DNA of 64,000 bases, from assembly GCF_026210795.1 (NCBI RefSeq), contig NC_089439.1:1426001-1490000 (forward strand), given 5' to 3'. Positions within the stretch are counted from its first letter, which is position 1. Every line of letters starts with the position of its first letter. The DNA comes from Rhizophagus irregularis. Its lineage: Eukaryota; Glomeromycota; Glomeromycetes; Glomerales; Glomeraceae. This document shows positions 12,841 to 64,000 of the stretch, piece after piece. The notes under the pieces are model-generated. The model made no database searches, was not told the DNA's origin, and saw only the letters and a list, made by a program, of their open reading frames with translations. Made by a program: the position numbers and the translations under genes.

Positions 12841-13025
12841 CTCTTAAATAACAAATCAGATTTTTGAAAGAAACCACCGATGGATAGAAAATAGATAAGA
12901 GTCGTCGATGATAGTAATCGAAAACAGAAATGTGGACTATTAGTCGGAAGAGGTTATGAATCCAGTGAAACTGGACTTCACCTAAATCTACTTCGTACCC
13001 TTTGGGTAGTTCCATTAATCTATTA

Positions 13026-13515
13026 ACGCCACATATTGTTATCTGCTTCTCCGAACTTGTGAAGCGTAAAACAGATTTCTTCACAATCCGAGAATGTGAA
13101 GTGGAGTAACTTTTTTTTCACATCCCACCTTAACTTGTGAAGAAAATATACTTTTATTTCACACCTTTAACTTGTGAAGTGGAGTAACTTTTTTTTCACA
13201 CCTTTAACTTGTGAAAAAAAAAATATCTGCGCCCTTAATATAACAAATAAATTTCATCAGGTATTATCTACAAGATAATATATAAGCACTTTCTTAGAAA
13301 ACAAGGGGGCGCAGATATTTTTTTTTTCACAAGTTAAAGGTGTGAAAAAAAAGTTACTCCACTTCACAAGTTAAAGGTGTGAAATAAAAGTATATTTTCT
13401 TCACAAGTTAAGGTGGGATGTGAAAAAAAAGTTACTCCACTTCACATTCTCAGATTGTGAAGAAATCTGTTTTACGCTTCACAAGTTCGGAGAAGCAGAT
13501 AACAATATGTGGCGT
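13026..13515. repeat. 209-bp near-perfect inverted repeat around a 72-bp spacer
   Basis: Left arm 13026-13234 and right arm 13307-13515 are equal in length and differ at one visible base. Each arm contains repeated words CACAAGTTAAAGGTGTG and AGTTACTCCACTTCACA and ends in a unit (TTCGGAGAAGCAGATAAC) found elsewhere. Partial copies lie at about 13570-13660, 15240-15420, 21850-21900 (inverted), 23080-23235 and 63765-63850. A transcript across it would fold into a very long hairpin. Confidence 0.95.
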
Positions 13516-14230
13516 GCTCAGACGACCCGTGTTGCCTACGCTATCCCTCTCTACGGGAGATCTATTCCACTGTGTGAAAAAAAAGTTACTCCACTTCACA
13601 TTTTCGGATTGTGAAGAAATCTGTTTTACGTTTCACAAGTTCGGAGAAGCAGATTGACGTGCTCAGACAACCCGTATTGCCTACGTTATCCCTCCCTACG
13701 GGAGATCTATTCCACTGTGTGAAAAAAAAGTTACTCCACTTCATACTTTCGGATTGTGCTGTCTACATTATTCTCTCGCAGTCACACACGTTGTTCCTCC
13801 CGCTGTCCACTTATTATGCTAACATATTATATGAAAGTTCCCTCTGAGGGGAGTTTCATTTTGGTAGACACGTCCACTCCTAATCATTTCCGCAGTAACT
13901 CCCGCAGTAACTCCCGCAGTCGCTCACGTTATTCCTCCCTTCGGGAGAGACTCCATGTCTACGTTATCCCCTCTGTTGTCCACTCATATTCTGCAACGCA
14001 GTCATCAACTTATTATGTTAACATAATATATGAAACTCTCCTCTGAGGGGAGTTTCATTTTGGTGGGACACTACTTTTTCACTCTTCAGCCTTCCTTTGG
14101 GAGAGTCTCTATCTCTACGTTATTCCTCCCTTTGTCCACTAATAATCAATTCCACAGCTGTCTACGTTATTCCTCCCGTTGCCCACTTTTTATCATTTCC
14201 GCAACTGTCTTCTTTATTCTCCCTAAAAAT

Positions 14231-14269
14231 CACGTGACTTGGACGACTTTGGGTCGTTGAAATTTTTAC
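14231..14269 (+). repeat. CACGTG-hairpin module
   Basis: CACGTG, then a stem ACGAC/GTCGT with loop TTTGG, then GAAATTTTTAC. One of at least ten such modules in the window with constant flanks and variable core. Confidence 0.75.
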
Positions 14270-16346
14270 TGTTATGCTCGTTCTGTAAAATTTTGGTAAC
14301 CATTGGGGAGTTTCATTTTGGTGGGACACTTCTATTCCACTGTGTTACCTTTGCTCACGTTATTTCTCCCGCAGTCGTCTACGTTATTCTTCCTGTTGTC
14401 CACTAAAAAATTTCAACGACCCGAAGTCTCTCAAAGTCACGTGATTTCAACCGGGGGTACTGGCCCAAATTTCTTGGCAAAATGGGGAGTTTCATTTTGG
14501 TGGGACGCCACTTAATCTGTACTGCAACCGTCTACGTTATTCCCTCCCTGTTGTCCACTCCTAATCATTTCCGCAGTAACTTCCGCAGTAGCTCCCGCAG
14601 TCGCTCACGTCATTCCTCCCATTATCCACTAATATCTATTCCGCAGCTGTCTACGTTTTCCTCCGCAGAATGTCTATCTACGTCCTGTAATACGTCATGG
14701 TCACATGATACTCTATACATTTGTTCAGAGTGTCACATGTATGCTGTTGTCCACTAATCATCTGTTCTGCAATTACGCTTACGTTATTATTCCTCTGCAG
14801 TCGTTCATGTTATTGTTCACTAATAATCAATTCCGCAGTAGATACGTCATTCCTCCTATATTCTGCAATGCAGTCACTCATATTATTCTTCCGCAGGAGC
14901 TCACGTTATATGAATGTCCCCTCTGAGGGGAGTTTCATTTTGGCATATGCCCGGTCAAAATTACAGAACGGACTGAACTGTAAAATTTCAACGACCAGAA
15001 GTCGCTTAAAGTCACGTGGTTTTCCTGATCTGAGGTCAGCGAAATTTTTATTACCGTTGTCCACTAATAATCTATTCCGCAGGAGCTAATTATAGGAGTG
15101 CCTACGCTATCACTCCCTACGGGAGATCATTCTACTGTGTGTTACCTTCGCTCACGTTATTCCTCCCGCAGTCATCTACATTATTCTTCCTGTTGTCCAC
15201 TAAAAAAATTTCAACGACCCGAAGTCGCCAAAGTCACGTGATTTGGGCGAACAAGTTCGGAGAAGCAGATAACAATATGTGACGTGCTTAGACGACCTGT
15301 GTTGTCTACGCTATCCCTCCCTACGGGAGATTTATTCTACTGTGTGAAAAAAATAGTCATACAATTCACATATTCAGATTGTGAAGAAATCTGTTTTACG
15401 CTTCATATGTTAAAAGTGTGTTACCTTCGCTCACGTTATTCCCTCCGCTGTGGACAACGGTAACGATTATTATAGTACATATTAATTGATAATGCCGTTA
15501 CATGATTCGGATTTTCACATCCCTTGAAGAGGCGGTAACGATGACCACGTATCTTCTCTGTAGTCACATACCACATAATGTCAGTGACAGTTATCCGATA
15601 ATGTTTTTTACACAAATTGTATTTTTTGTAATGATGTATCATGAACTAAGAGGTACGTACTTAGCTTTTCAAAGAATAAATAACCAGTGCACTCATCGTT
15701 ACCGGTAATATATTGATCGTTACCAACTAATTCACTCTATTGTGGAAGTATATGTAACGATTGAATACTCTCCGCTATTGACCATTATAGTTACACAAAA
15801 ATTACTTCATCGTTCTTATTTGTACTCCGCAATTGGCAATTATCGTTACATAAAGAACTACTTATTGGTAATTATCGGTAATTAGTTCTCTACTTCGCAC
15901 TTGGTAATTATTGGGCAGAGCCCAGTTCCACTGGTATTATTGGTAACTATTGATAATTCTCATTACACAAAAAATTCCTGAGGGCGCTAAAGGGACTTTA
16001 TCGTTACAAAAAATTAGTGAATTACTTGTCTATGCAGATTTGAGCATTAGTGGACAACATGGATAATTTTTTGGGCGGAGCCCACGCTATGCCTGTACAT
16101 ATGTTACGTAATACTAATAAATATTCGAGTGTGTATGTACTACGTTAGCTTGATGACAGGTATATGCAGACAAGTAAATGTGGACGGGTGCCCTCCAGGC
16201 ATTCTGCTTTGCAATGCGTTCCTAATGTAACTGCAGCTACATTTTTTGGGCGGAGCCCAGGCTATGCCTGTAATTACTTTTCAGGTCAACCAATATATAC
16301 ACTCTTGTAGAAAATATAGTCATCGTTACAAAAATATGAATAGCTA

Positions 16347-16387
16347 GTCACGTGACTTTGGCGACTTCGGGTCGTTGAAATTTTTAC
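16347..16387 (+). repeat. CACGTG-hairpin module
   Basis: CACGTG at 16349-16354, core stem CGAC/GTCG (16362-16365 and 16371-16374) with loop TTCGG, then GAAATTTTTAC. Followed by TTACAG...CTGTAA, a wider inverted pair. Confidence 0.75.
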
Positions 16388-18007
16388 AGTTCACTTCGTG
16401 GGCATAGCCCAGTCCGTTCTGTAATTTTGTGTTTCATATAATATGTAAGCATATGAAGGCGATTTGTTATTTTTGATCGTAAAACGCCTATTTTATAACT
16501 ACTTCCGTAGTCGGTTTCCTCATATTCTTCTCCGCCACTGTCTACGTTATTCCTCCTGTCGTCCATGTTTTTCCCCCTGTTGTCGATAACACTTATATAC
16601 ATATACTGTTTTTGTTACAATACAGTATATAAAAAACTTTGGTAACATTTTTCGCATATATTTAGTTTAATGAAGCGTATATTGGTTGGTAACCATGATT
16701 ATAGTTACCATTTTTGTATAGGCAATGCCACTGCGAAGCAATGTGTTTCTAATGTAATGATGTTCATGTATGTTTAGTTCAACGGGATAACAAACATTTA
16801 TATATTGTGGATATGTATATGACCATATGCACTGGGCGAAGCCTACGCTCATGTGGATGGAATATACTCTAATCGTTACTAACTAATTTGTATTGATGGT
16901 AACGGAATTTATGTACTTATCATTACCATGAGCACACCCTTTGGGTGGACCTACTCTTGCCGCTCAGTTCCTAGGTCTACTAATTTCCTATTCCGCCCAC
17001 AGACATCGATTATGTACTTCATCGTTACAAGAAATTTCACTTCGTGGGCAAAGCCCAGTCTCGTGTCTCGTGGAGATTACTTCACATACAACAACAATTA
17101 TATACGTTATGTGGACATCGTTAACAACAATAGGCAACTGTTATCTACAGCCGGATTGACTAATAATTACTTCCTAATGTCACCTTCGCCCACATCATTC
17201 CTGGACATCGTTACCACATTCAATTAATGAAACATGGGCTGACATCGTTACTGCAGTATTGAGTGTTAGTGGGCAACAGGAATAACCTAGTCTACTGCAT
17301 TAGGAACACATTGCTTCGCAATGCCATGAGTGTGGGCTTCGCCCATTCCACTGTTAACCTGTTCGCATTACAATGTCCAGTATTTTCCATAGTGTATCTC
17401 GGTTGAATATAACTATTACGTTTTTTGTAATGATGTCAACCCATGTTTCAGTAAGTAATTCTGGTAACGATGAGTGCACATCGACTGAATTGCCTGGAGG
17501 AGTTCCACTGTTCCTAATGTAATATCCACTGTTACCAGTAATATAATAATCGTTACCAACTAATACACTCTATTGTAGAAGTATATGTAACTATTGCTTC
17601 GCAATGTGTAGTGTCACGTGAATGCCGTTATTCCCCCGTTGTCCACTTATTATGCTAACATAATATATGAAGTCTCCTCTGAGGGGAGTTTCATTTTGCT
17701 CTTCGAGCAGTCTTTGACTGACCTGTGTTGCCTACGTTATCTCTCCCGAAGGGAGATGCTTTCCACGTCTACGTTATTCTTCTGCAGTCGCTCAAAGTCA
17801 CGTGATTTCCAAGACGGCCCGTCCCAGAAATTACAGAACGGTATGATTTGTAAAAATTTCAACGACCAGTAGTCATCAAAGTCACGTGAAAATAAACAAT
17901 GTGATACTTTGCTTCATGTGATACTATTTATGTGACACTATTCATGTGACACACTGAACAAATGTACAGAGTATCATGTGCCCCCTTTGGCAGTCTCGAC
18001 TGACCAT

Positions 18008-18505
18008 GACGTAGTATTTACTCATGTGAATAACGGTAAGAATTTCCCCAGTATCACCGTAGAAAAATGTCACATTCACGTGATCGTTATTTATTCATCA
18101 CAACCGTCACACCCACTGCGTTTCCATTTTCTATAAGTATCTGAGGGACTTAGTTTTTTTCGAGTAGGCAAAACCTTATTCATCACCCATTATTCATCAC
18201 TGTTTATTTTCACGTGTTAGTGCATAACGCCGTAATGCGGGCTAAATGTGACATTTTTCTACGGTGATACTGGGGAAGTTAACGGTAAGTGACTGCGGCA
18301 GAATAACGTGAGCGTGATTGCGGGACAGATTATTAGTGGACAACAGCATTCACGTGACATCGATACCTGAGGGTCCTATATTATGTGCTTCTGATAGTAT
18401 CCCGCCTGCGCCCACATTCACCCATGTTATTCCACTCATACTCTAAATTAGTGGCGACATGTGGGAGATAACATGGGCAATGGGTCGACTACGGGATTGA
18501 TTATT
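18008..18505. repeat. Segmental duplicate of 42367-42614, carrying a MITE insertion
   Basis: Apart from the 239-bp element plus one TSD copy, this stretch is nearly identical to 42367-42614, about 24 kb away in the same orientation. The distant copy lacks the element and so records the empty site. Confidence 0.9.
18041..18279. mobile_element. 239-bp MITE with 10-bp TSD (MULE-like)
   Basis: TSD TAACGGTAAG at 18031-18040 and 18280-18289. The same 10 bp occurs once, uninterrupted, in the duplicate at 42389-42398. Inverted ends include CCCCAGTATCACC continuing through TAGAAAAATGTCAC, perfect over 28 bp. The interior shares a long block with the element at 4713-4955 (CATTTTCTATAAGTATCTGA and neighbours). 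No ORF. Confidence 0.95.
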
Positions 18506-19429
18506 AGTGAATTACGGAATCCCACTGGGATATGCCACAGCCTTCTACTTTATTCTCCTCTTCGGAAGAGGCAATCAATGTAATAATATACAAAATATCT
18601 GTCCATAGATGTTGGAACAGGGCAATGCGCAGTAATGAGGCTCTAAGTGTCTCATGAATAAATTCTACTCACGTTGCTAATTTTCACATGACTATATTGT
18701 GCATCACTACAGTGTAATGATGTCACGTAATTTTCTACAGTATGGTGGTGATCAGTCCTCCATTATTTTCACTTCCTTCGGAAGGTCCATAAATGGACTG
18801 GAATGGGCTATTTCTTCAAAAGGCCACGCCAAGCCCCTCGTTCCTCGAAAAATCAGTGTAACTGAGCGGAGCTCACTTCCCTTGGAAGGGCTTTAGCCCG
18901 GCACAGCCGTCCATTACATGGACTGGAGATTAATTGGTATACAATTGGTCTATTAATCCTCTACAGTAAGAAATTTGCGAATCTGGATAGTACGAAGTAA
19001 TGTGTTCCAGAGGACGTTCTACTTCGTACCTTTTAGGTAGGAACCTACGTTCATAGGCTCGAAGAGCAAAATTATTCTCCTGAAGGGAGGTTTCACTGGA
19101 ATGACGAATGACCATATTAGACAATTTTTTAGTCCGTAGGACCTTCTTCGAAGTGCATTTTTTACGTATTTCACCTCTTCCTTTTTCCAGTGGAACCCGA
19201 AGGAAAAATTATGCTCACCACTGTATGTGTCTGTTGAATACCACTTTCACATCAAATTTATTTGGAATGGCGAATGTGTGAAAATGGCCAGGAATAATTA
19301 CTAGTATCCCTTAGGTATCGACAGCATTGATTATTAGTGGACAACGGACCCTATGGGCCACTTTACAAATCGTTGACTATTGAACTTTTCTGCTGTTAAT
19401 TGACACATTACTCTCAGAACTCACATTTG
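18506..19429. other. Mosaic spacer upstream of the coiled-coil gene
   Basis: Contains repeat units and micro-hairpins but no convincing gene. The frames at 18699-18896 and 18930-19124 translate repeat sequence. Confidence 0.5.
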
Positions 19430-21055
19430 ATGGAATCGTTGAAAGAGTTAAATTCCAGACTCTTAATCGAGATTACCGACCTTAGGAATGAGTATGCTAA
19501 GATCAAAGCTGAGAATACGAAGTTAAAACATGTCATAGAAGAAAGCGCTGAGCTCAGATCCAGATTCGAAGAACTGGAGAAAAGAAATAAAGTTGATACC
19601 AATAACCTTATCGCAGAGAATGCTGCTCTCAAAATCAGAGTTGCGAAATTAGAACAGCAGCCTGAGCGTCTTGCTCTAGAAACCTATGTTTTTACTTCGT
19701 ACCCTCTGGGTAGAACTTCCTCTAAAGGTCTTAGTAAATGTGTTCCTAATGCTGCTCAACCACGCTCATTACATAAGGAGGTTATAGGAACCCAGGTTCC
19801 TAGGTCCACTCAAACCCAAGAGTTCATTCCAACACATTCCGAAGAGAAAATGCCTCAAGAGCTCAACATGGTCATTCAACCATGCAATAGATCGCACAAG
19901 AAACAAGGGATAGATGAACTCAAACACGAATTATTCAAACCCTTTTCAGAACCAGAGTCATCCTCGATAAACCATAATAATGTGACTGAAGTTTCCGAGA
20001 CGGCCCGTCCCGGAAAAGTTACCTATGACAGCATTGATGAAGCCTCACAGCATTTAGCCCAATTATGTGATAAAGCTATCGATGCTGAAGAAAGAGCGAA
20101 TCGAGCTAATCAGGAAGAAATTTTATGTTGGTGCCTTTACTGGAAGGATTTCAGAGTTCAGCTTGACGAGATTATCAGTAAAGATAAGTTTGGTGAAAAG
20201 AAGGCAAGGAGCTTACTATATGATTCCATTACAAAACAACTTAATTTGCTTCGCAAACAAAGATCCCAAGAATTAGGATTGCAACTCCGATACATATCAC
20301 GGGATAGCTTGCGTAAGAAGACTCAGAGAGCTGAAAAAATCTATAGATTGTTCAGGAAAGTGGGTATGGATAAAATCAAGTATATTAAATCATATAGTGC
20401 AAATTCTATTTCCAAGCTTACTAATGAACAAATTCAAGAGGTTATAGATTATGGAATAACTTTAGAAAAGTTACCTCTGGTAACAAATGATCATGCGACT
20501 GAAATTTCTGAGACGGCCCGTCCCGGAAAATCCTTGTCTGAAAATATGACCTCAGAAAGCTTCGATGGTGTTCAGAACAACGTATATTCGAAAAACGGGG
20601 TGAATATCTCAGCCACACCAAATGACCTGTTTCTCATCAAAAACGAATCGGAAAAGATAGATCACGTGACCGAAATTTCCGAGACGGCCCGTCCCGGAAA
20701 ACCCTTGCCAGAAAATATTGCCTCAAAAACCTTCGATAGTGTTCAGAACAATACATCTCCGAAAAATGAGGTAAATGTCTCAGCCACGCCAAATGACCTG
20801 CTTCTCATCAAAAACGAATCGGATATAGACGCAGATGATAGTCAGTGTTCAGACCCTCATACCTTGAGGGATATTCCAGCGTTCACGAGCATACCCGTGA
20901 CAATGAGAGAATCTAACCGATGGAAGGGTGACACACTCAGTAGTGACAGTAGTTCGGATAGTTCCTCAGAAACTGAAACAGAAAGTTGTACAGATTCTGA
21001 ATCTGAATACAACGACTATGATGCAGCAGAATTTTACATAAAATCATTTATGTAG
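19430..21055 (+). CDS. 541-aa coiled-coil protein with hairpin repeats embedded in frame
   Basis: First ATG in the frame is 19430 (the frame opens at 19400 with TTG). Residues ~1-78 form a leucine-rich coiled coil (MESLKELNSRLLIEITDLRN...). Residues ~88-140 are encoded by the same repeats that fill the surrounding DNA: TACCC-TCT-GGGTA at 19700-19712 and AGGAACC-CA-GGTTCCT at 19786-19801. A charged helical block follows (about 197-345, including KARSLLYDSITKQLNLLRK and RKKTQRAEKIYRLFRKVG). The palindrome around GACGGCCCGTC gives the peptide SETARPGK three times (residues 189, 360, 417); the last two lie in a 57-residue tandem repeat. The C-terminus is Ser/Asp/Glu-rich. I recall similar central blocks in many Rhizophagus proteins of unknown function, but cannot verify this. 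Probably expressed, since 541 codons stay open across repeat-derived sequence. No enzyme motif seen. Confidence 0.8.
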   Translation: MESLKELNSRLLIEITDLRNEYAKIKAENTKLKHVIEESAELRSRFEELEKRNKVDTNNLIAENAALKIRVAKLEQQPERLALETYVFTSYPLGRTSSKGLSKCVPNAAQPRSLHKEVIGTQVPRSTQTQEFIPTHSEEKMPQELNMVIQPCNRSHKKQGIDELKHELFKPFSEPESSSINHNNVTEVSETARPGKVTYDSIDEASQHLAQLCDKAIDAEERANRANQEEILCWCLYWKDFRVQLDEIISKDKFGEKKARSLLYDSITKQLNLLRKQRSQELGLQLRYISRDSLRKKTQRAEKIYRLFRKVGMDKIKYIKSYSANSISKLTNEQIQEVIDYGITLEKLPLVTNDHATEISETARPGKSLSENMTSESFDGVQNNVYSKNGVNISATPNDLFLIKNESEKIDHVTEISETARPGKPLPENIASKTFDSVQNNTSPKNEVNVSATPNDLLLIKNESDIDADDSQCSDPHTLRDIPAFTSIPVTMRESNRWKGDTLSSDSSSDSSSETETESCTDSESEYNDYDAAEFYIKSFM

Positions 21056-24000: not shown

Positions 24001-25608
24001 CCGGAGGGTACGAAGTAGAGGGTATTGCGAATCAATTCCACAGCTGTCTACGTTATTCCTCTTGTTGCCCACTTTTTATCATTTCCGCAACTGTCTTCTT
24101 TATTCTTCTGCTGTCTCCCTAAAAATCAGATTTTGCCAAGAAATTTGGGCGAACATTGTTCGCCGAAATCACGTGACTTTGAGTGACTTTCAGTCATTGA
24201 GTTTTTTTTAGTGGACAGTGAACGTACTTAACCTGTTAACGAGAGAAAAGTTCAAATTCCCTTTCTCCTCACCCATGTTATTACTCCGCAGGAGCTAATC
24301 ATAGAGAGGGGCATGTGACCATGACGCAGTATTTACTCATGTGCCAGGTCGACCAATAGAAAAATACATGAACATCGTTACCGGAAATATCTACCCCGGA
24401 GGGTACGAAGTAGAGGATATTGCGAATCAATATGTATTGTCCCTGTGTCTCTGCAGTAGATATCCTCGTTGTACGTCATCTTCTACAAGTCACCTACTAA
24501 CAATTACATACATTGGTGTAGGTGTATATATTAGTTGATAATGCTGTTATATTAGGAACAGTGGAACCCCTCCAGGCGCTTCCGAAGGGAGCATTACACA
24601 AAAAATATACTTCATCGTTATTATTAGTACTCCACAATTGGTAATCATTAGTATTATTGGTAATATCGGTAGGAATAACGTAATGACTGAGGAGAGAAAC
24701 ACAGCCACATGGTTACCAGGCACTCCCTGTCCACTAATAATCTTTTCCGCAGTAGACTACGTTGATAACTCATATACATATACTGTTTTTGTTACAATAC
24801 AGCAAATAAGTGCCTTTGGTAACGATTTTCGCATATGTTTAGTTTAATGAAGCGTATATTGGTTGGTAACCATGATTACATATACTGTTAGTTACCATTT
24901 TAGTATAGGGCATGCTACTGCGAAACAATGTGTTCCGAGATTGCGAAGCTCAGGCAAGAACTCAAGTCTAGTGTCGAGGAACAGGAGCGAAAAAATTCAC
25001 GGCGGTCACTGATTTTTCTTGGCAATTTTCCGAGACCGCCGGTCCCAGAAATTACAGTTCACTCCGTTCTGTAATTTCGACATTAGGAAAATAGTTCAAA
25101 TGATAACTGAGGTAAGTCTGCTGCGGAATACTTCATAGTTACAGGCATAGCCTGGGCTCCGCCCAAAAAAATAGTAGGGCAAGACAGTCAGTGGGCGCAA
25201 TTGCGGAACAGATTATTAGTGGACAACAGATACGTAGTACCCATAGATATCAACAGCGGAGAAGCTTCTAAGAATTTATTTTGGTAACCATGTGAACATG
25301 TTTGTAACTATGCGAACATCGAAGTAAAAACAGTATATACATTTATTGTGTTGACATCGTTACCAAAAATATCCCTGAGCTTTGCCCCTCCCTTTGGGAG
25401 ATGCATTCATGTCTACGTTATTCTGCAGTCACTCAAACCCGTTACCATTGATAACAGGGTTTCACATGTAGACACTTCCCTCTGGACACCCGCAGCGCAG
25501 CAGTCTACTTTATTCTTCCGCAGTCTCTTAGTCGGAGAAACACATTACTTCGTAATGCCTGTAGGGCAAGACGCTCAGTAGACAGCTGCGCTGCGGGTGC
25601 CCAGAGGG
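21056..25608. repeat. Mosaic spacer with no recognisable gene
   Basis: Dense micro-hairpins and shuffled units. The palindrome family AGGAACCTAGGTTCCT appears in degenerate form near 21,740 and 22,315, a GGCGAAC-ATT-GTTCGCC hairpin at 24148-24164 faces a CACGTG at 24170, and GACCG-C-CGGTC lies near 25,033. ORFs here (for example 22688-22897 and 23574-23798) lack protein-like composition. Confidence 0.6.
24148..24175 (-). repeat. CACGTG-hairpin module, inverted orientation
   Basis: GGCGAAC (24148-24154), loop ATT, GTTCGCC (24158-24164), GAAAT, CACGTG (24170-24175). The same core, with loop AAT, occurs downstream of a CACGTG at 41832-41848. Confidence 0.75.
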
Positions 25609-25857: not shown

Positions 25858-26640
25858 ATTCCTCCCAAAGGGAGAGTCATTCCATGTCTACGTTACCCCT
25901 CCTGCAGTCACCTACCTCATCGTTACAAAAAAATCAGTCGGAGAGCCCTTGGCTGGGCGAAGCCCACTGCTCGGAGAGCACGTGACTTGGATTGCCTCTC
26001 CCGAAGGGAGGAATAACGGAGTCTCTGACCGAACGACTGCGTCACACAATATAAGTGGACAACAGAAAGAAGAACACATGACACTACACTAAAGAGCACA
26101 TCAGTAAATATTACGTCATAATCACCTGATACTCTGAACTAGTGTGCAGCGTGTCACATGAATAAATCCTACTCACGTGCTTATTTCCACCTGACTATAT
26201 TGTAACTGCGGAATTGATTTGGATAGTGGAGAATGTTAGTAGTAACATCATCTCATTTTTTGATGTGAACTCTACCCCTATGAACTGACCATCTTGCTGC
26301 TCAACCACGCTGTTAACAGAGGAGGTTCTAGGAACCTATGTTCATAGGGCAAGACGGTCAGTACGAAGTAGAAACGTGTAAAAATTCTTAGATTGCTCAT
26401 TCTATCTAGACTAACTAAATAACTACTATTGTAGAAAAAATACGTGAACTTCGTTACCACGCTTTAGCGCCTCTCGGGAAGCTGCGGAAATGATTATTAG
26501 TAGACAACAGGAAGAATAACGTAAACGACTGCTGCGGAATACTTCATAGTTACAAAAAAGTAGTAGGGCACATGAGTAAATACTACGTCATTATCAGTCA
26601 GAGACTGCCCGAAGGGCACATGCTCTGAACTGACCGTCCG
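25858..26640. repeat. Mosaic spacer with no gene
   Basis: Repeat units and hairpins only, including TGCCC-GAA-GGGCA at 26606-26618. No coding signal apart from repeat translation. Confidence 0.5.
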
Positions 26641-29420: not shown

Positions 29421-31520
29421 ATTTGAAGCAATACAACATCAAACCAAGTGATTTACGCAAAATTGGTCTAGATCATCTTTCTAGATTACATGGCAGACGT
29501 AACGATTCTCATCGTCAGACGTTTGGGATGTAGTCGATGCCATTCCGCAGAATGCCCAGAAGGAACTGCTACGTATACCTGTCTACGTCATGGTCACATG
29601 ATACTCTACGCTGACCATCTTGCCGCTCAACCACGCTTTTAGAGGAGGTTCTAGGAACCTAGGTTCCTGGGTTCAGAGTGTCACATGAATGCCGTTGTCC
29701 ACTAATAATCTGTCCTGCAATCACGTCCACGTTATTCCTCCGCAGGAGTTCACGTTATTTCTCCTGTTGTCCACTCATATTCTGCGACGCAATCTCTCAC
29801 GCCGTTATTCACTAACAATCAATTCCGCATAGACTATTATTCACTAATTTTTTGTAACGATGAAACATATTTTTTTGTAGAGTACCAATAGTACATTAAT
29901 TGGTAATGCTGTTACATAACTCTGGTAACGAGGTTTGCATCTCTTTTTACAATAGAGTATATTACTCGTTATCGATAACACCCTGCGGGTGGTTCTACCC
30001 GGGTCAACCAATGCGCACACTATTGTAGAAAAATACATGAATAACGTTACCTGTCCGGAAATAATAGTACACAGGACATATTCATTACACGCAGTGTATA
30101 TTGTGTTACATGCATATATTTGTTGGTAACGATGTAGCTATGTTAGGATAAACTTTGATAACGATATCATATACTGCATTGTACATCCCTTCGGGAGAGT
30201 GCTGATATAACATAGGGATGATAGCGTGGACAACATGAGAATAACTGCTCTTCTAGCAGTCTCTGACTGAGTAGCATTGATGGAGGATTAACGTAGACAA
30301 CATTGGAAGAGAAGTGTATGTAGATGATAACGGACATGCCATGGGTAAAAGGTGTAGACTGTATGAAGATAACGTGGGTAACAGGGAGGAGATGGCCAGC
30401 ATGTCATGGGGAGATATTTATCAATGATTACCAATTGCGGAGTACTAATAATGATGAAGAATATTTTTTGTATAGATAATTATCATTGACATGAGCGCAC
30501 CCTGCTGGTAGGGCAAGATATTTTCCCATGTTATCTGAGCGTCTTGCCCTAGTCTTTAGACCTTCCTTCGGAAGTGAACGTAGGTTCCTACCTAAAGGTA
30601 CTACGTAGAACCTCCTCTGTTACCAGCGCACCCTGCGGGTGGTTCTACTGGTTGAGCGGCAAGACGGTCATTCAATTAGGTGAAAGAAATGTACACAAAA
30701 AATCTTCATGATTTTTCGAGGAACGAGGAAAATAATGAAGCGTTATTCCCTGCAGTCGCTCACGTTATTCCTCCGCAGTCGCCTACGTAACCCCTCTCAT
30801 ATTCTGCGAAGAAGTCACGTTCCTGATCTCTATTACCACCCGTATTATAGTCCGTATTATGCTAGTATTCGAAAACTATTCACTCTATTAACATGCAGAT
30901 GTAACCTTATGTGAAATTCTTCGAGTAGATACAGCTACAAACATGTAACGCAATATAACGTGGATGTGTGTTTAGTAGTATTGTGGACAAAATTACGTAA
31001 TTATGTGCCTAGGAACCTTGGTTCATAGAACCTCCATTAGGAACACCCTAAGACCTTTGCAGAGGAAGTTCCCTTCGGGGGCAAGAGCCCTTGGCTGGGC
31101 AAAGCCCACTGTCAGCCAGGAGTAATAAATTTACTAGATTTAACAGATTACAGTGGTCTGCGTCTACAATTAGTACTTTATTCACCAGTATCGTCATAAA
31201 TGTTCAAGCTAAATCTACAAATTCACTGTCTTTTTGGGTCAACACAAAAACCCCCTCACTTTTGGTGTCTGCATTCTTCCTGTATTACAGTCTCGAATAA
31301 CGTGTGCTATGAATACGAGAAGTGATAAATGGCACCAGCAGACTACACTTCTTTGAGGTCGACTAATTTACTTCGCATGTTTTACTTAGGCGAAGCATGC
31401 GAAGTAGTGGAACTGGCTCGAAAGACTAAGCCAAACCTCATCACTTCGTTCAGAATGTCCTGCCATTCTACCACAGACGTATAAATGATTGTTACCGATA
31501 GTAAGATCCACTTTTCCTGG
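29421..31520. repeat. Hairpin-rich mosaic without genes
   Basis: Includes CACCC-TGC-GGGTG twice (29979-29991 and 30629-30641), CTTCC-TTC-GGAAG (30562-30574) and the palindrome AGGAACCTAGGTTCCT near 29,656. The frames at 30708-30914 and 31091-31300 show no protein features. Confidence 0.6.
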
Positions 31521-31523: not shown

Positions 31524-31751
31524 TTATGCAGCCCCTCGAAGAGGTGAGCTTACCGGTGAAGGAATTTTTTCTAGGCTAGAGTAGATGATAGGTTTGTCAG
31601 AGTCATCCGGTACAGGATTGTCTCTCTCCGAGAATACAAATAGTTTACCCACAGAATTCTGGGCAATCGTGTAGCTAGGTGTCACTCCTTTTCTCCTCGA
31701 CTTTCGTAATTGGATGCCGTACATTTTTTGTAGGACAGAATTTATGAACAC
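31524..31751 (-). pseudogene. C-terminal piece of the primase-helicase, shifted frame
   Basis: Overlaps the end of the helicase frame by 10 bp and continues in a different frame with FINSVLQKMYGIQLRKSRRK and SYTIAQNSVGKLFVF. A basic, helix-rich ending of this kind looks like a C-terminal winged-helix tail. The shift lies close to 31,750. The last codons pass into mosaic DNA. Confidence 0.55.
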
Positions 31752-34195
31752 AAGGCTCCTCTTGAGGAATCGCCCCTGTCCCTTTCTCTGCTAAGGGCGT
31801 CCACATTAACTTTTCTCACTTCAAACTCGTACAAGAACTTGTCCATGTGTTTCTTAAGTGCGGGCAGCAACTCACGTATATTCCTTTCCAGAAGCTCATC
31901 CTGGACGCCGTTCATATCTCGTATACACTGAAAGCCGCACCTACGTAAAAGACCAATAGCAAGGCAGTGTGCATGGTATGCGTAGGTTTTTCGCTCGTTC
32001 AACAGGTCACGCCCTTCCTTTACATAGCTAGTAGGATCAGAAGACTCTTCTCCATGGTCCCCCAGAATATCTGTGTATCTCGTGAACTTGTGTTCCCGCA
32101 TTTTTTGGAGAGCCTCGTCTACGGTCTTCCCGCAGGTGATATTTTCTAGGTTATGGTACACTTGTTTGACTGCGGGCTTCGAATAGTTTTTAATGAACTC
32201 GGGAGTTATTTCACCACCGTACTCATAGAGCTCACGTAGGTTGTACTTTTTCAGTGAATTCTTTTCTGGAACAGTAACGTCTTCTTCATTATTCAGCCTT
32301 TCTACCAGAGAGAGGGCACTAATCTTGGAAATATTTGGGGACGTAGCCACTGCCTCGCAATGCACAAGCTCCAGCTCATTCTTAATAGACTTATAAGTAG
32401 CACGATGACCGCTGCTGACGCTAGGGTCGTGCGCAGGCAGAAGGGCAATGCTGGCGCCAGTGGAAGCGACTTGATCCACGAATCGGAGCATGAACTTGTT
32501 TTTCGAGAGGTTCTTGAGTCGCTCAGTCTCAAGCCAGAGATGGAAGTAATCGGACTTGTAAAACCGGATACCGCCGTCCACAGTATGCTCAAACTGTAGT
32601 GCAACGTCAGTAACTGTCTGGTATAGTCCGGTGCGTTTGTCATGTAGCAGCTGGGAAATTTCATCGGTAGTCTCGGCCAATGAATGGCAGTCATTCATCA
32701 GCCGAAAACAGACAAAGTATTCCCGTGTTCGAAGCTTCCGGACTCTGGCCAGCATCTGTCGGCAAGTCTCAACGTCGCATGAATTGTCACTGAAACAAGC
32801 GAAGACAGTATCAAAGTGCTCTAACTCGAAACTAGTGCCAGCTGAGACAGTGGGGGTGTAGATGAAGACATCGAGCCCACTCCAGTAGGAATGAACGTCA
32901 CCGAAGTGCTCCTTCTTTTTCGAGGGGAGGGTCTCGCTGCTGTAGAGTTCCACTTTCTTGTCACCAGCCCTAGTGTGTAGGAGCTCTTCGACGAACTTTG
33001 CGTCTTTGAGGCAGTTTGCAGGAACAACAATTTTCTGTCCACTATGTACGGCCTTTAGGAGGGACTCTATCCAGTCCCCCATATTAGTCGTGAAAAAGAA
33101 CTGGTCCTCTTTTGCTCTGGAGAAGACATTCCAGTGGAGAAGCGTAGGTAAAGCCCGCATTCGCCGTAAAGTATTTACAGTGCGAGCACCAAGGTTAGCA
33201 TCCATACAAACTACGTGCCGTGCACTGCTCAACATCCATTTAAATGCTGCGAAGGCAGAACTAAAATGTTTATGCAGGCCACTACTGAACTGTGCGAGTG
33301 TCGACTCTACCTCATCAAGGATGAGTAAATCGATAGGCTCATGTTCCGAAGGGATAATAATGCGGTGAAGGGACTCTACCTGTACAATCACACGAGGAAA
33401 GTCCGCCTGGCATATCCCACTAAGGCCTATGTCCTTGTACGAAGTAAAGTCGGGGAACAACGGTTGCAGGGATTGGCTAAATGTCTGGCGAAAAGTAACA
33501 AAACGGATGACGGGTTCTCTTGATGCATTCCGTGGAAAATGCTTGTCAAGGTAGCGACGGAGAGTTTTAGTCTTACCTAATCCCATATTGCCTCGGACTA
33601 GCAAGGTAGGCACTAGCTCATAGTCTGCCATAGAGTCACTGGAGTATTTGTTGATATTCGTAAGAAGGGAATCGGCAGAAGTATCAACACTAAGACCAGG
33701 GTCAATTGTTCCGCCATGGACGCAGTTAATACGTGTACCCAAAAGGTCTTGCCTAGAAAACCTGCCAGAAGAAGGGCCCTGTGAGAGGGACTGCCCGTCA
33801 CTAGCAGAAACAGGGGAAATAGCATCAATAGGATACTCATAGGAGCGAGAAATAGTGTTGTTGCCAGCAGTGAGATACCCGAGTGTGCGATGATTTCTCT
33901 TAGAATCTTGACGGCATCCCTCTTCGACGGCCCACAGTGTTTCACTTTTCTGTTTCAGAAACAAGTAGAGAGAATTGTCCCGGTGGTGAGTCTCATTACA
34001 GATAGTGCAGTGGGTAGGGAAACTTCTGTCGAAATTAGCAAAGGGAAACGTGACATCACGAAGAGAAAAGCCATAAGTAACGTGCAGATCATTAGCGAGA
34101 GAAATAGCGTGATCGATAAGGGTTTCCTGACAATCCATGGAAGCAGGAGAAAAGATGGGAGGGGCACCAGCATCGGCTATGCTGGCATTCCCCAC
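31742..34195 (-). CDS. UL9/Herpes_ori_bp-like superfamily 2 helicase, central and C-terminal part of a primase-helicase (817-codon frame)
   Basis: Landmarks in this frame: CTICNETHHRDNSLYLFL (residues 63-80), a zinc-finger pattern seen at the end of archaeo-eukaryotic primase domains; Walker A GNMGLGKTKT (202-211); Walker B ILDEVES (292-298); ARHVVCMDANLG; then IYTPTVSAGTSF and CDVETCRQMLARVR, the motif V and VI region. This is the pattern of origin-binding-protein helicases (Pfam Herpes_ori_bp). They unwind DNA at replication origins; here the helicase is fused to a primase. The frame overlaps the primase frame by 19 bp, so there is at least one frameshift near 34,190. GC content is higher than in the neighbours. 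Similar genes are, from memory, repeated in Glomeromycotina genomes. The Walker motifs are intact. Confidence 0.85.
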   Translation of the reverse strand: MGNASIADAGAPPIFSPASMDCQETLIDHAISLANDLHVTYGFSLRDVTFPFANFDRSFPTHCTICNETHHRDNSLYLFLKQKSETLWAVEEGCRQDSKRNHRTLGYLTAGNNTISRSYEYPIDAISPVSASDGQSLSQGPSSGRFSRQDLLGTRINCVHGGTIDPGLSVDTSADSLLTNINKYSSDSMADYELVPTLLVRGNMGLGKTKTLRRYLDKHFPRNASREPVIRFVTFRQTFSQSLQPLFPDFTSYKDIGLSGICQADFPRVIVQVESLHRIIIPSEHEPIDLLILDEVESTLAQFSSGLHKHFSSAFAAFKWMLSSARHVVCMDANLGARTVNTLRRMRALPTLLHWNVFSRAKEDQFFFTTNMGDWIESLLKAVHSGQKIVVPANCLKDAKFVEELLHTRAGDKKVELYSSETLPSKKKEHFGDVHSYWSGLDVFIYTPTVSAGTSFELEHFDTVFACFSDNSCDVETCRQMLARVRKLRTREYFVCFRLMNDCHSLAETTDEISQLLHDKRTGLYQTVTDVALQFEHTVDGGIRFYKSDYFHLWLETERLKNLSKNKFMLRFVDQVASTGASIALLPAHDPSVSSGHRATYKSIKNELELVHCEAVATSPNISKISALSLVERLNNEEDVTVPEKNSLKKYNLRELYEYGGEITPEFIKNYSKPAVKQVYHNLENITCGKTVDEALQKMREHKFTRYTDILGDHGEESSDPTSYVKEGRDLLNERKTYAYHAHCLAIGLLRRCGFQCIRDMNGVQDELLERNIRELLPALKKHMDKFLYEFEVRKVNVDALSRERDRGDSSRGALCS

Positions 34196-34910
34196 GATGC
34201 TGTTCCAGTAGGGTTTGCAGTAACAAGGAGGGAATCATGAAATTCGATCACATCTTTAGTGCCCAACTGCGAGGAATAGGGGGACAGGACAAATGGCCGA
34301 GACTCACCTAGCTTAGAAGAGCCATACAAACGAAAGCACTGTATGCGCTTGTTGACATCGTCCACGTACTTGTGCAAGTGATGAGGGAGGCGGGACAAAA
34401 GTCGACTCCTGAAGTTTCGTGCCTCCACGTAGTTGCAGAAGGCATGAGCCGTGAGGTGGAGATGGAACGAGTATTTCCACTTACCCTTGGAGCGAGAAAA
34501 CCCACTAGAGTCTAGGAGTGTAAAGGATTTCCTATGAGGGTAGATGTTATAGGAATCATAGAACTCTTGTTCGAAGGCATCGATAATAGTCCTCATGATA
34601 GAGACAACCTGCTGATCCTCACCACGAGGAATATCGTCGATGTCAATATCAAGTTTAGGTGCTGAGGGCGATGGCCAAAGATAACTTCGTCGTAACATCT
34701 GTGGCCATTAGGGAGAGAGAGATAGTGGTCCCAGAACTCATTCCGGGTATGGAACACGAGATACAGGCCACCCAGGTTGTCTTTCACGACAACCATCTCG
34801 CCAGATAGTTTGTTTAGATTGTACTTGTTCTCCAGGGCTTGATAGCCATCAAGGGAATCTCTCTTAAGAATAGTCTTGTAGTTCTCAACAGGATCGAGGT
34901 CGTCAAACAT
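34177..34910 (-). pseudogene. Archaeo-eukaryotic primase domain of the same primase-helicase, in two frames
   Basis: ATG 34910 opens a frame (MFDDLDPVENYKTILKRD ... GHRCYDEVIFGHRP) that shifts near 34,665 into a second frame (SAPKLDIDIDDIP onwards). The second frame has the AEP motifs: DxD in KLDIDID, SxH in KYSFHLHL, and the basic CFRLYGSSKLGESRP. The shift is consistent with loss of one base in a C-run. Together with 31742-34195 this makes one gene with primase then helicase, read through three frames plus a fourth at the C-terminus. It could be a genuine pseudogene or contain assembly errors. Confidence 0.75.
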
Positions 34911-52550: not shown

Positions 52551-52592
52551 CACGTGATTTTGCTGACCCGAGGTCAGCAACATTTATTACCG
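52551..52592 (+). repeat. CACGTG-hairpin module
   Basis: CACGTG (52551-52556), ATTTT, GCTGACC-CGA-GGTCAGC (52562-52578; perfect 7-bp arms), then an AACATTTATTAC tail. Same layout as other modules, different core. Confidence 0.8.
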
Positions 52593-55783: not shown

Positions 55784-56362
55784 ATTTAATCTCTGTTAAA
55801 AAGTCAGAGGTTTTATAGACACTATTATTATTTCAATTTTCATTTCACAATCGACTAACTGTCATCCCTCACGCTTTAACACCCAATAACAATGCATAAA
55901 ACAGGAGATTACACAGTTTGGTGCAATGTCAACTCTTTAAAATATTGTATTCTGCTATGTATAGGGCCGAAAAGGGGAGGATCGAGGAAATGAGTCTAGT
56001 CCTAGAGTAACCCCAAAAGGTGTGCCCGTTGGGCAGTCTTCGACTGAAATAGCCCTTCCAAATGAAGTAAGGGCATCAACATTTACCAAAACATAACAAG
56101 CAAATCACCATACAGAGAGAATGGTAAGGGGCTGTTCATCGCATGCTCTGTGCTTAGAAATCGCCTCTCTATGTAGACTGACTGTGCATCATATTTTTTC
56201 TACTGTGGGCGTCCTTTTCCTTAGAGAATAATCGCTAACTAATTAATACTAATAAAGACTCTCATGCGCAATTTTTTGGGCAAGCCTAGGCAGAGCCTAC
56301 GAAGAAGTTTCACTGAAAAGTTTTGTTTACATTTATATTCGATTGCAATTCGCAAGATACAA

Positions 56363-57447: not shown

Positions 57448-57645
57448 TCACACTTGACGTAGAGAGTGGCGCAGTATATATTCTACTATATAATCGACAT
57501 TCAGGAATACCTTTATCACGTTCTCTTTCCATTTGTCTTTGCAAGTATTTTTATATAAGTAATCAGTCATAGACTGCTCGAAGAGCAAATGATAAAACTT
57601 TTTTACAAAATAGGCCTGTGCATTGTTCAACGAAACTTCACGCAT
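57448..57645 (-). CDS. Short ORF with a hairpin unit in frame (65 codons)
   Basis: Contains AYFVKKFYHLLFEQSMTDYL, where LFEQSMTD is encoded by the GCTCT-TCG-AGC-type repeat also seen near 17,700 (LLFEQSLTDL). The C-terminal half (KENVIKVFLNVDYIVEYIL) looks protein-like. Could be a gene remnant that received a repeat. Low certainty. Confidence 0.25.
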   Translation of the reverse strand: MREVSLNNAQAYFVKKFYHLLFEQSMTDYLYKNTCKDKWKENVIKVFLNVDYIVEYILRHSLRQV

Positions 57646-62300: not shown

Positions 62301-62400
62301 AAAATCGGGTTAACCTGTTATTTTTTTGTCTTAGCCATGCAGCTTATTTACTGTAAATATTTCACAATGTCCGTAGCCCGTTCAATGGCAAAGAAACCAG
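59301..62400. other. AT-rich block free of the hairpin mosaic
   Basis: Base composition shifts abruptly: long A/T runs and none of the micro-hairpin units. Apart from the small spliced gene at 61389-61734 and a coding-like fragment near 62,113-62,250 (EPSLEENDEFLAINELETDI), I see no gene here. Confidence 0.6.
61389..61734 (+). CDS. Small spliced gene, 88 aa, unknown function
   Basis: Exon 1 61389-61618 and exon 2 61698-61734, intron 61619-61697 (GTGAGA...TCATAG, 79 bp). The splice removes an apparent TGA and joins FEDVSR to LVDEPVDHLKF before the real stop. The protein reads MEQALLSIHIHFYNSASYTF, NVCIGNVVGIASVKVESFAD and PWNDGQDYIFTYYLFEDV. Possibly only the 3' part of a longer gene. Family not recognised. 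It lies in host-type AT-rich DNA. Confidence 0.55.
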
Positions 62401-64000
62401 GTGTACCCTAAACATTTGTTCGTTAGAGACGGCCTAAAGGGACATGTTCAGAGATGTATGGAAATAATACAGAATAGAAAAGTGCATGCTAAAATATAAG
62501 GGTAGTGTAACAAAACGGTTTGACGACATGCTCCTGCTATTGGCTAGTAAAAGGAACAAAAGAATACCGTATGCATATGCAGGGAAGGTTATGAGTGGGT
62601 ATAGGAACCCAAGTTCTTACCTGAAAGGTACTACGTAGAACTTCCTTATTTAAAGAGCGCACCTGTGGGTGATTTCTCTTTAGAGATCTTCCGGAAAGTG
62701 AAATTGGACGTCTGCGGATAAAAATATGTGAAGGGAAAATGCAGTCCCACACAAAAAGAGTACTGTGGAATTCATTCATTTGCAATACGAAAAAAGCTGT
62801 AAGCTACTATCATTATGCATGATATGCGGAGACGGACCAACTCAGTATCACTGCTATATCTCTAATGCAGACAGATTAAGGAGTAACAATAATCTCATGT
62901 GAATGTGTGGAAAAATTCAGAGCCATGCGAACCCTAACAAGCCATGTGAATGCGAAAAGGAAAAGGCAGTGCAAACCACAAGCAGAACAACAGACTGCGC
63001 AATAGCCTGTGCTACAGACTGCAGTAGAGAAGGAATCCTTCAGCATATATACAAAAACAACGCCCGTACTAAGAGTCTACGCCTAAAATATATGAAGAAA
63101 TTCCCGATGCAATACTATGTATTCTGGTGAAATCATGTTTCGCCCAAAACTAAGAAATGTTGATCTCTGGAAAGTAGCGTGTAATTCGGTAAACAGATTC
63201 ATTGGAAATAAGTAGTTGTAGTCAGTTCCACTAAGCGAATCTGAAAATACCTCTTATTCGGCCGGAGACTGCCCAAAGGGTACAGAATTTGTCACGTGAT
63301 TTGAGCGACTTCAGGTCGTCGAAATTGTGCCCTTTAGGGCAGTCTCTGACTGAATTTTATTCACAGAAATTTATCATGTGATTTTTGCCAAGAGATTCCG
63401 TGATTGTTAGTCCCGTCTCTTCATCCATAATTACGAAATCATTAGTGCAGAAGAGATATTGGGTACATTTCCGTCTAGAAACATCATATACATTCCGGAG
63501 GCAGGAATATTTAGTCTTTAGACCTTCCAAACCACCCTCTGGGTAGGGCTTCTTCTCGAATTATAAAACATTTGGTTTTATGGGAAGTAGATAATATCGT
63601 ATTTACCGAATGCAGAACAAAAAGGAGAGTAAATATCAATGGAGAAGTATGTCCAGAAGACATTTACGAAAATGTGAATAGCAAAGATAGAGCAGCTAGT
63701 AGATGTGGAAGTGTTATGGGTTGCTGGCAAGCAGTAGTTTAAAGTGGATATTTGGCCTATAGTTGCTCTGCTTCACAAGTTAAAGGCGTGGGTGTGAAAA
63801 AATGATCATACAATTCAGTCAAAGACTGCCTAAAGGCACAACTTCGGATAAGCAGATAACGTTACGTGACGTGTCAGGCGACCTGTGTTGCTTAGGTTTT
63901 CCCATGTAGACAGAACCCTCTGAGTGCCTGCAGCCGTCTACGTTCTCCTTCCGCAGTCACCAAAAAAATCACGTAATTTCAGCGACCTCAGGTCGCCCAA
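62401..64000. repeat. Hairpin-rich mosaic III
   Basis: Repeat units return: GTACCTTTCAGG-type pairs near 62,620, CACGTG-hairpin modules at 63293-63326 and 63968-64000 (GCGACC-TCA-GGTCGC at 63982-63996), and part of the 209-bp arm family at about 63766-63850. The ORF at 62903-63130 is Cys-containing but I find no support that it is a gene. Confidence 0.65.
63293..63326 (+). repeat. CACGTG-hairpin module
   Basis: CACGTG (63293-63298), ATTTGAG, CGAC...GTCG (63306-63309 and 63315-63318) with loop TTCAG, then TCGAAATT. Confidence 0.7.

What the first reader, a model, noticed from the sequence alone, without database searches (positions are those of the whole stretch)
12841..64000. Nuclear DNA saturated with GC-rich micro-hairpins of many families
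At least ten distinct odd-length palindromes recur in both orientations: TACCC-TTT-GGGTA (12996, 41693), CACCC-TGC-GGGTG (29979, 30629), CACCC-TTT-GGGTG (16935), CTCCC-TAC-GGGAG (13692), CTTCC-TTC-GGAAG (30562), TGCCC-GAA-GGGCA (26606), TGGGC-GGA-GCCCA (16072), CCCTC-T-GAGGG (13840), CCGGGGCCCCGG (45251). Between families the arm sequence differs, but arms within a copy match, and the centre (often 3 nt) is free to vary. This resembles mitochondrial GC clusters or double-hairpin elements, but the DNA is nuclear by its introns and transposons. A hairpin-forming mobile or template-switch process is a plausible cause, and may be undescribed.
Basis: partly seen in the sequence, partly recalled or inferred. 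Interest (0 to 1): 0.82.

Follow-up and report, generated by a model that had tools for sequence, protein, structure and literature searches.

The report
Tiny mobile double-hairpins in nuclear DNA
Islands of unusual, probably virus-derived DNA in the chromosomes of a soil fungus are peppered with DNA snippets of about 20 letters that fold into two miniature hairpins and appear to have jumped from place to place, which resembles a kind of mobile DNA otherwise known from mitochondria.

Summary
In window 12841-64000, G+C-rich 5-bp-arm hairpins with 3-nt loops number 33 against 1.5 in local dinucleotide shuffles. Their centres are not free: 236 of 292 C..G-closed hairpins carry a purine-N-A loop on one strand (81%; background 40%). 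Arms stop sharply at 5 bp, and neighbouring hairpins favour a spacing of exactly 11 bp. The unit is a 20-24 bp double hairpin. Two families have 49 and 55 copies genome-wide (reversed controls 0); 77 of 104 lie in three islands, about 0.4% of the 147-Mb genome of Rhizophagus irregularis. The window lies in one (about C11:1.44-1.75 Mb). The islands are G+C-rich; those on C11 and C20 carry an asfarvirus-like helicase. Paralogous copies differ by presence or absence of these units: 13 of 26 non-tandem 14-40 bp indels contain one, against 0.7 expected. Resident copies diverge at the background rate without compensation, yet arms covary between copies, so structure seems needed to spread, not to stay. 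Best reading: mobile micro-hairpins, like mitochondrial GC clusters or double-hairpin elements, but in nuclear, probably viral, DNA. The mobilising enzyme is unknown.

The parts
12961..64000 (.). Part of the hairpin island lying in this window (sites of the double-hairpin families continue to about C11:1.748 Mb, beyond the window)
   Evidence: Hairpin density and G+C profile; genome-wide sites of both families
12989..13008 (+).
   Evidence: C11:1438989-1439008
19020..19039 (+). TA-type double hairpin TACTTCGTACCTTTTAGGTA; 18 bp of it are absent from paralogous copies, with TA kept once at the empty site
19693..19712 (+). TA-type double hairpin TACTTCGTACCCTCTGGGTA
17697..17720 (+). TG-type double hairpin TGCTCTTCGAGCAGTCTTTGACTG
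26595..26618 (-). TG-type double hairpin with the variable arm pair changed on both sides (TGCCC/GGGCA instead of TGCTC/GAGCA)
56023..56046 (+). TG-type double hairpin TGCCCGTTGGGCAGTCTTCGACTG
57564..57587 (-). TG-type double hairpin
16247..16270 (.). Double hairpin TGGGC-GGA-GCCCA / CAGGC-TAT-GCCTG sharing CA; its C20 paralogue differs by two uncompensated changes
25142..25165 (.). The same arms in the other orientation (CAGGC-ATA-GCCTG / TGGGC-TCC-GCCCA)
16072..16093 (.). 22-bp double-hairpin unit; the 96%-identical C20 copy has the empty site with a single TG
14974..14975 (.). Empty site: the C20 paralogue carries 18 extra bp (TGGGCTATGCCTACGAAG) here with TG at both ends
31086..31107 (.). 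22-bp double-hairpin unit absent from the C20 paralogue (overlaps the hairpin at 31096)
19057..19226 (+). Copy of a roughly 140-bp inverted-repeat element whose copies carry different micro-hairpins at the same internal sites
31742..34234 (-). Asfarvirus F1055L-like origin-binding helicase gene (Herpes_ori_bp), one sign that the island is of viral origin

Best explanation
The hairpins are copies of mobile, non-coding micro-elements. The typical element is a 20-24 bp double hairpin built as X-arm-loop-arm'-X'-arm-loop-arm'-X, where X is 2-3 nt (TG, TA, TGG/CCA) and X' its complement, with triloops that read purine-N-A on one strand, mostly closed by C..G. Shown: the architecture, dispersal of two families, concentration in three G+C-rich islands, presence/absence at paralogous sites, background-rate divergence of resident copies, and covariation of arms between copies. 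Inferred: the elements insert (rather than only being lost), the folded single strand is what the moving machinery recognises, and that machinery came with or acts on an asfarvirus-like giant-virus insertion. No enzyme is identified.
For: Loop, arm and spacing rules in 233,160 bp of island sequence. Two families: 49 and 55 genome sites, reversed-pattern controls 0; 37 of 49 and 40 of 55 in three islands. Island samples on C20 and C10 hold 0.50-2.20 such hairpins per kb (9 loci); two G+C-rich flank stretches of C11 hold 0.00 and 0.10, so G+C alone does not explain them. Presence/absence: 13 of 26 non-tandem indels of 14-40 bp hold a C(R-N-A)G hairpin, against a mean of 0.73 and a maximum of 4 in 500 random draws; 10 of the other 13 look like the same class with a wobble pair, shorter arm or 4-nt loop, by inspection. 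An inverted-repeat element, 15 copies aligned, carries different hairpins at about five sites, with empty copies; the uninterrupted sequence is shared by its two inverted ends, so empty is probably ancestral (by eye). At 29 homologous hairpins arm divergence is 4.1%, background 4.3%; all 12 arm differences counted are one-sided. Between copies the variable pair is T-A 40, C-G 7, other 2 of 49 (C-G expected 1.3 if the sides were independent), and C-G 35, T-A 14, other 6 of 55 (expected 25.6 and 4.9). Elements avoid long ORFs (0.35 against 1.16 per kb).
Against: No mobilising enzyme or mechanism was found. Direct repeats at the 13 hairpin indels are 0 nt in 7, 1 nt in 2, 2 nt in 2 and 3 nt in 2, unlike a classic transposon, and X at both ends also follows automatically from two overlapping palindromes. 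Many indels come from alignments of only 68-85% identity. The window/C20 alignment also has indels without hairpins: 13, 23, 28 (tandem) and about 280 bp, and a 240-bp element. Insertion polarity is argued, not proven. Island duplications make copies partly dependent. The divergence test rests on 29 hairpins and 12 counted differences, one base change being counted twice because hairpins overlap. The island limits were drawn from the sites themselves.
Confidence: 0.74

Rival explanations
1. Template switching at replication forks (quasi-palindrome correction) creates or perfects short inverted repeats again and again in this DNA, so they are made in place and do not move.
For: Arms match within each copy while arm sequences differ between families; at one site of the inverted-repeat element a hairpin arm coincides with target sequence (GAGCA); 7 of 13 hairpin indels show no direct repeat.
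Against: All 12 arm differences counted at homologous copies are one-sided. A sharp 5-bp arm limit, an 11-bp spacing and R-N-A loops are not predicted. The same 24-bp and 20-bp doublets recur 49 and 55 times.
Confidence: 0.1
2. The hairpins are functional RNA or DNA signals of integrated viral genes, such as transcription terminators, kept by selection.
For: They avoid long ORFs. Of the few near ORFs, the R-N-A loop is on the coding strand in 6 of 8 downstream and 1 of 6 upstream, a small-number bias that would fit a strand-specific signal. Giant viruses are known to end transcripts at hairpins (recalled, not from a call).
Against: No clear excess downstream of 34 long ORFs: 8 hairpins within 400 bp downstream, 6 upstream. 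Resident copies diverge at the background rate. They come and go inside copies of an inverted-repeat element.
Confidence: 0.07
3. They are inert passengers of organelle origin, carried in with mitochondrial DNA, as argued for Volvox nuclear palindromes.
For: Rhizophagus mtDNA carries 13 types of short inverted repeat of unknown dispersal (PMC4316621, passages and section 12 read); Volvox nuclear palindromes are judged inert and organelle-derived (PMC2670323, passages).
Against: The islands carry an asfarvirus-like helicase, kinase and transposon genes, the window has no Rfam match, and units vary by presence/absence between island copies. The mtDNA itself was not available to compare.
Confidence: 0.06

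Closest known systems
Yeast mitochondrial GC clusters (e.g. GC42; PMC4478555, passages read)
   Same: Short G+C-rich hairpin elements, mostly intergenic, polymorphic; the abundant ones are flanked by direct repeats (AG or ACT) like target-site duplications.
   Different: Those are mitochondrial and longer (42 nt for GC42), with substitutions concentrated in loops. Here the host DNA is nuclear, the unit is 20-24 bp, loops are mostly R-N-A, and direct repeats vary from 0 to 3 nt.
Double-hairpin elements of Allomyces mtDNA (Paquin et al. 2000; seen only as cited, content recalled)
   Same: Two hairpins in one mobile unit.
   Different: Mitochondrial; no sequence relationship could be tested.
Repetitive hairpin-forming elements of sponge mtDNA (PMC2800124, passages)
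   Same: Hairpin repeats in intergenic DNA, stems conserved and loops varying; apparent double hairpins arise by tandem insertion.
   Different: Mitochondrial; stems in the passages seen are longer (10 bp and 18 bp, each with a 7-bp loop).
Volvox carteri palindromic repeats (PMC2670323, passages)
   Same: Short palindromes that also occur in nuclear DNA.
   Different: Nuclear Volvox copies are described as inert and organelle-derived; an average size of 50 nt is given in the passage seen.
Short inverted repeats (SIRs) of Rhizophagus mtDNA (PMC4316621, section 12)
   Same: Same genus, hairpin-forming, dispersal mechanism unknown.
   Different: Mitochondrial; the sequences are in a figure that is not held, so not compared.
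GNA trinucleotide-loop DNA minihairpins (Yoshizawa et al. 1997, as cited in PMC6479982, passages)
   Same: GAA, GGA, GTA and GCA loops are of the GNA class that gives extraordinarily stable DNA minihairpins.
   Different: A physical motif, not a mobile element; ANA loops (AGA, AAA, ATA), also common here, were not checked in print.

Membership tests
Mitochondrial GC clusters / double-hairpin elements | Resides in mitochondrial DNA | tested here: not met
   The three islands lie in contigs of 3.8-5.3 Mb; AT-rich flanks shown for C11
Mitochondrial GC clusters / double-hairpin elements | Short G+C-rich hairpin or double hairpin dispersed in non-coding DNA | tested here: met
Mitochondrial GC clusters / double-hairpin elements | Presence/absence at homologous sites with short direct repeats | tested here: inconclusive
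   Presence/absence met; direct repeats of 2-3 nt in 4 of 13 hairpin indels and in four further 18-bp units, but 0 nt in 7 of 13
Mitochondrial GC clusters / double-hairpin elements | Loops more variable than stems | tested here: inconclusive
   Between copies loops vary within R-N-A; between homologous copies loops and arms diverge alike (3.4% and 4.1%)
Known RNA families (Rfam 15) | Match to a curated covariance model at gathering score | tested here: not met
   0 matches in the window
Giant endogenous viral element (asfarvirus-like) | Raised G+C island in an AT-rich fungal chromosome | tested here: met
   C11 island 0.32-0.40 against 0.26-0.29 in five of seven flank loci, the other two being G+C-rich too; C20 0.29-0.42 and C10 0.33-0.35; published GEVE 36.6% against 28% (PMC10640383)
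Giant endogenous viral element (asfarvirus-like) | Nucleocytovirus marker genes | tested here: inconclusive
   F1055L-like helicase on C11 and C20 and DNA_pol_B in L031 on C20; Pox_A32 matches occur genome-wide; capsid and RNA polymerase not sought
DNA transposon (class II, non-autonomous) | Constant-length target-site duplication and ends recognised by a known transposase | tested here: not met
   Direct repeats 0-3 nt; transposase genes exist in the island but nothing links them to these units
REP/RAYT or IS200/IS605 type hairpin-guided ssDNA transposition (recalled) | A Y1 HUH transposase that recognises the hairpin | not tested
   None among the Pfam families shown for the ORFs scanned (one search shows 25 of 32 families for 86 of 111 ORFs); not searched genome-wide

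The most novel reading that the evidence does not exclude
A class of minimal transposons, about 22 bp of pure structure, moves in the nucleus by a single-stranded DNA step in which an enzyme of an integrated asfarvirus-like giant virus recognises tandem GNA- or ANA-loop minihairpins. It would be the nuclear, viral counterpart of mitochondrial GC clusters, and perhaps a source of them.
Probability: 0.25. Interest if true: 0.86.

Novelty: new variant of a known kind. Interest (0 to 1): 0.63.

Why it matters
Mobile hairpin elements are an old puzzle of organelle DNA because how they move is unclear. Here is a nuclear, probably viral, set with an unusually strict build and several clean empty sites, so insertion rules and structure requirements can be read from sequence. 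It also offers a marker for giant-virus DNA in arbuscular mycorrhizal fungi, and a test of whether a viral enzyme can mobilise bare DNA structure.

Tried and rejected
Viral relatives: a scan of IMG/VR with the TG-type pattern found one match, inside coding frames of a 66% G+C contig with ordinary hairpin statistics, taken as chance. The window's helicase as single query found none; an alignment of 19 proteins found two distant loci with no C(R-N-A)G hairpins of arm 5. So whether free viruses carry the units is untested. Poxvirus A32 as a marker of the islands was dropped because it matches 88 places across the genome. Terminators were judged unlikely. A first TA-type pattern had one N too few and found 4 sites; the corrected one found 55. 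RNA folding of five single units gave modest energies, and for one unit a fold other than the double hairpin; it was not used as evidence. Literature: searches for double-hairpin elements, palindromes in giant viruses, Rhizophagus inverted repeats, nuclear hairpin elements, Rhizophagus transposons with palindromes and bypass elements (8 of 19 papers listed) showed no title or abstract start describing these units. I saw listings, plus passages or sections of the papers cited; no paper was read whole, and most subscription papers are not in that library.
Full report
WHERE IT IS. The window is C11:1426001-1490000 of a 146,748,485-bp genome in 32 contigs. A protein named as R. irregularis in public records (P0004, OCT59_012826) matches C20 at 100% over 621 residues, and another (P0121, OCT59_002895) is identical over 98% of an island ORF and is recorded on a contig of the same length as C11. 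So the species is Rhizophagus irregularis (inference from these two).

IS IT REAL. In 12841-64000, arm-5, loop-3 hairpins with at least four G+C in the arm number 33 against 1.5 +/- 1.4 in ten local dinucleotide shuffles; without the G+C condition 163 against 70. Loop 1 gives 8 against 2.1 in the G+C-rich class, and several other loop sizes show excesses of about 1.4-fold without the G+C condition. Window 1-12840 shows none of the G+C-rich loop-3 class.

THE RULES. I pooled 233,160 bp of island sequence (window 12841 on, 13 loci of C11, 4 of C20, 2 of C10). Of 652 loop-3 hairpins with arms of 5 or more, 292 close with C..G, 37 with G..C, 118 with A..T and 205 with T..A. Of the 292, 236 (81%) have a loop that reads purine-N-A on one strand: GAA 83, AGA 49, AAA 41, GGA 25, ATA 15, GTA 12, GCA 9, ACA 2. 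The same test gives 40% for any C-NNN-G in the sample and 35-41% for hairpins with other closing pairs; in 82,840 bp outside the island 18 C-closed hairpins exist, 7 of them R-N-A. Among the C(R-N-A)G hairpins arms are cut at 5 bp: the chance of extending from 4 to 5 is 0.63 and from 5 to 6 only 0.11, against a flat 0.27-0.31 in control hairpins. Of successive pairs within 40 bp, 40 lie exactly 11 bp apart, 4 at 9, none at 10, 12 or 13, and 7 at 23. Hence the common unit: two 13-nt hairpins overlapping by two bases. GNA loops are known for extraordinarily stable DNA minihairpins (Yoshizawa 1997 as cited in PMC6479982, passages). That this points to single-stranded DNA is my inference.

FAMILIES AND ISLANDS. 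The TG-type doublet (TGCYC-NNN-GRGCA-GTC-NNN-GACTG) has 49 genome sites, 0 for the reversed pattern: 21 in C11:1.4437-1.7184 Mb, 10 in C20:0.843-1.056 Mb, 6 in C10:4.165-4.284 Mb, 12 elsewhere. The TA-type (TACTTCGTACC-NNNNN-GGTA) has 55, reversed 0: 21 in C11:1.439-1.748, 16 in C20:0.846-1.005, 3 in C10:4.164-4.165, 15 elsewhere. Together 77 of 104 lie in about 0.64 Mb, 0.4% of the genome; the limits are drawn from the sites themselves. Several of the other 27 are also clustered (C1 near 1.95-2.03 and 4.15-4.31 Mb, C2 near 0.87-0.98, C7 near 5.33, C11 near 1.11). C(R-N-A)G hairpins of arm 5 run at 0.50-2.20 per kb in nine C20 and C10 loci, and at 0.00-0.20 in seven C11 flank loci, of which two are as G+C-rich as the island. 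Single-hairpin patterns are less specific: CACCCNNNGGGTG 71 against 6 reversed; of the 50 places listed 19 are in the C11 island and 26 of the other 31 read CACCCTATGGGTG or its complement; TGGGCNNNGCCCA 142 against 20.

MOVEMENT. Window 14305-18757 aligns with C20:840079-844060 at 92-97%. Within it the window has a 22-bp unit at 16072 that C20 lacks, the empty site reading TTTTTTGTACATATG with a single TG, and C20 has an 18-bp unit that the window lacks at 14974, again with a single TG at the empty site. The same alignment has indels that are not hairpins: 3, 13, 23, 28 (tandem) and about 280 bp, and a 240-bp element. Further cases: an 18-bp TA-type at 19020 and a 22-bp unit at 31086; a tangled stretch at 29612-30640 holds further indels of 15-35 bp, some with hairpins, that I do not count. 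A roughly 140-bp inverted-repeat element, 15 copies aligned (24 shorter matches left out), holds different hairpins at about five internal sites, with empty copies, one site carrying unrelated hairpins in different copies, and one apparent insertion within an insertion, all by eye. Over all paralogous alignments in the island loci and window, one event per locus position, 29 indels of 14-40 bp met the flank criterion (27 of 30 flanking bases alike). Three are tandem repeats. Of the other 26, 13 hold a C(R-N-A)G hairpin with arms of at least 4, against a mean of 0.73 and a maximum of 4 in 500 draws of random island segments. By distinct inserted sequence it is 12 of 21. Of the 13 without, ten look like the same class with a wobble pair, shorter arm or 4-nt loop (four 18-mers, two 19-mers, one CTCCT-GAA-GGGAG unit, GTGGAACCCGAAGG three times), by inspection only; three (14, 23 and 23 bp) do not. 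Direct repeats at the 13 are 0 nt in 7, 1 nt in 2, 2 nt in 2, 3 nt in 2; the four 18-mers all have 2 nt. So a short duplicated target is common but not a rule.

STRUCTURE SEEMS NEEDED TO SPREAD, NOT TO STAY. Between the window and its C20 paralogues (17,726 aligned bases, background divergence 4.31%), 29 C(R-N-A)G hairpins diverge by 4.14% in arms and 3.45% in loops. All 12 arm differences are one-sided: 8 break a pair, 4 make a G-T wobble, none is compensated; one base change is counted in two overlapping hairpins. Between copies across the genome the variable pair covaries. TG-type: T-A 40, C-G 7, T-G 1, C-A 1 of 49, with C-G expected 1.3 if the sides were independent (the pattern allows only these four). 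TA-type: C-G 35, T-A 14, others 6 of 55, expected 25.6 and 4.9. In the TA-type this pair closes the loop, so C..G closing is usual, not universal. Loops fit R-N-A in 48 of 49 and 49 of 49 (TG-type, tallied by me from the loop counts) and 54 of 55 (TA-type). A mobile element whose mobilisation needs the fold explains both facts; a resident function or in-place correction explains only one.

THE ISLAND. G+C is 0.32-0.40 in the C11 island against 0.26-0.29 in five of seven flank loci; the two loci just left of it (within 1.400-1.426 Mb) are also G+C-rich, one with retrotransposon ORFs, and hold few hairpins. The window ORF 31742-34234 is an origin-binding helicase (PF02399, 2e-32) whose relatives include a protein named BA71V-F1055L in Elysia marginata, a Glomus cerebriforme protein and many unnamed proteins, largely from metagenome sources, at about 40%. 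Strong copies lie on C11 and C20 and a third at C10:4.81 Mb, about 0.5 Mb from the C10 island. DNA_pol_B is on the C20 island. A 1.5-Mb asfarvirus-related insertion with 36.6% G+C is published for chromosome 8 of strain 4401 and said to be absent from four other strains (PMC10640383; abstract, passages and section 6 read); a term search of its main text found no 'palindrom', 'hairpin' or 'inverted repeat'. Giant-virus origin is therefore likely but not shown; the C11 island also holds kinase, leucine-rich-repeat and transposase genes.

VERDICT. A real, ordered family of what appear to be mobile micro-hairpins in nuclear islands of probable giant-virus origin. They work like mitochondrial GC clusters or double-hairpin elements, but fail that family's defining location, so I file them as a new variant, not a member. 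The mechanism is open.

Noticed in passing
L020, L022, L024, L025 (C11), L032 (C20), L033 (C10): A multi-copy protein family (425-806 aa ORFs) related at about 25-38% to the N-terminal, C962R-like primase part of P0004. Of 17 weaker matches to that part, 13 lie in or within about 5 kb of the three hairpin islands, 2 lie 11-14 kb from a stray doublet on C21, and 2 are elsewhere (C11:2.51 Mb, C1:3.88 Mb). The DID of P0004 is not kept in the aligned copies; that it is catalytic is recalled. Of 10 relatives of the L022 member, 9 carry Rhizophagus names and 1 has no name.
   Followed up: partly
window 18041-18280: A roughly 240-bp element with inverted ends, absent from the 97%-identical C20 copy, with 10 bp overlapping at the empty site; about 30 further matches listed across the genome.
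   Followed up: partly
window 13030-13513: Long inverted repeat of roughly 190-bp arms around a short spacer, seen by eye; a fold-back element beside the left edge of the island.
   Followed up: no
window 10001-20000: The palindrome TCACGTGA occurs 10 times in this 10-kb stretch, at several places beside a CGACCCGAAGTCG-like motif (by eye).
   Followed up: no
C11:1.44-1.75 Mb: The island starts close to the coordinate given for the 1.5-Mb viral region on chromosome 8 of strain 4401 (1.37 Mb), and C11 (5.22 Mb) is close in length to chromosome 8 of DAOM-197198 (5.24 Mb); whether it is the same locus was not tested.
   Followed up: no
many contigs of G000: CACCCTATGGGTG/CACCCATAGGGTG looks like a separate scattered repeat: 26 of 31 listed places outside the C11 island (the list stops at C16).
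   Followed up: no
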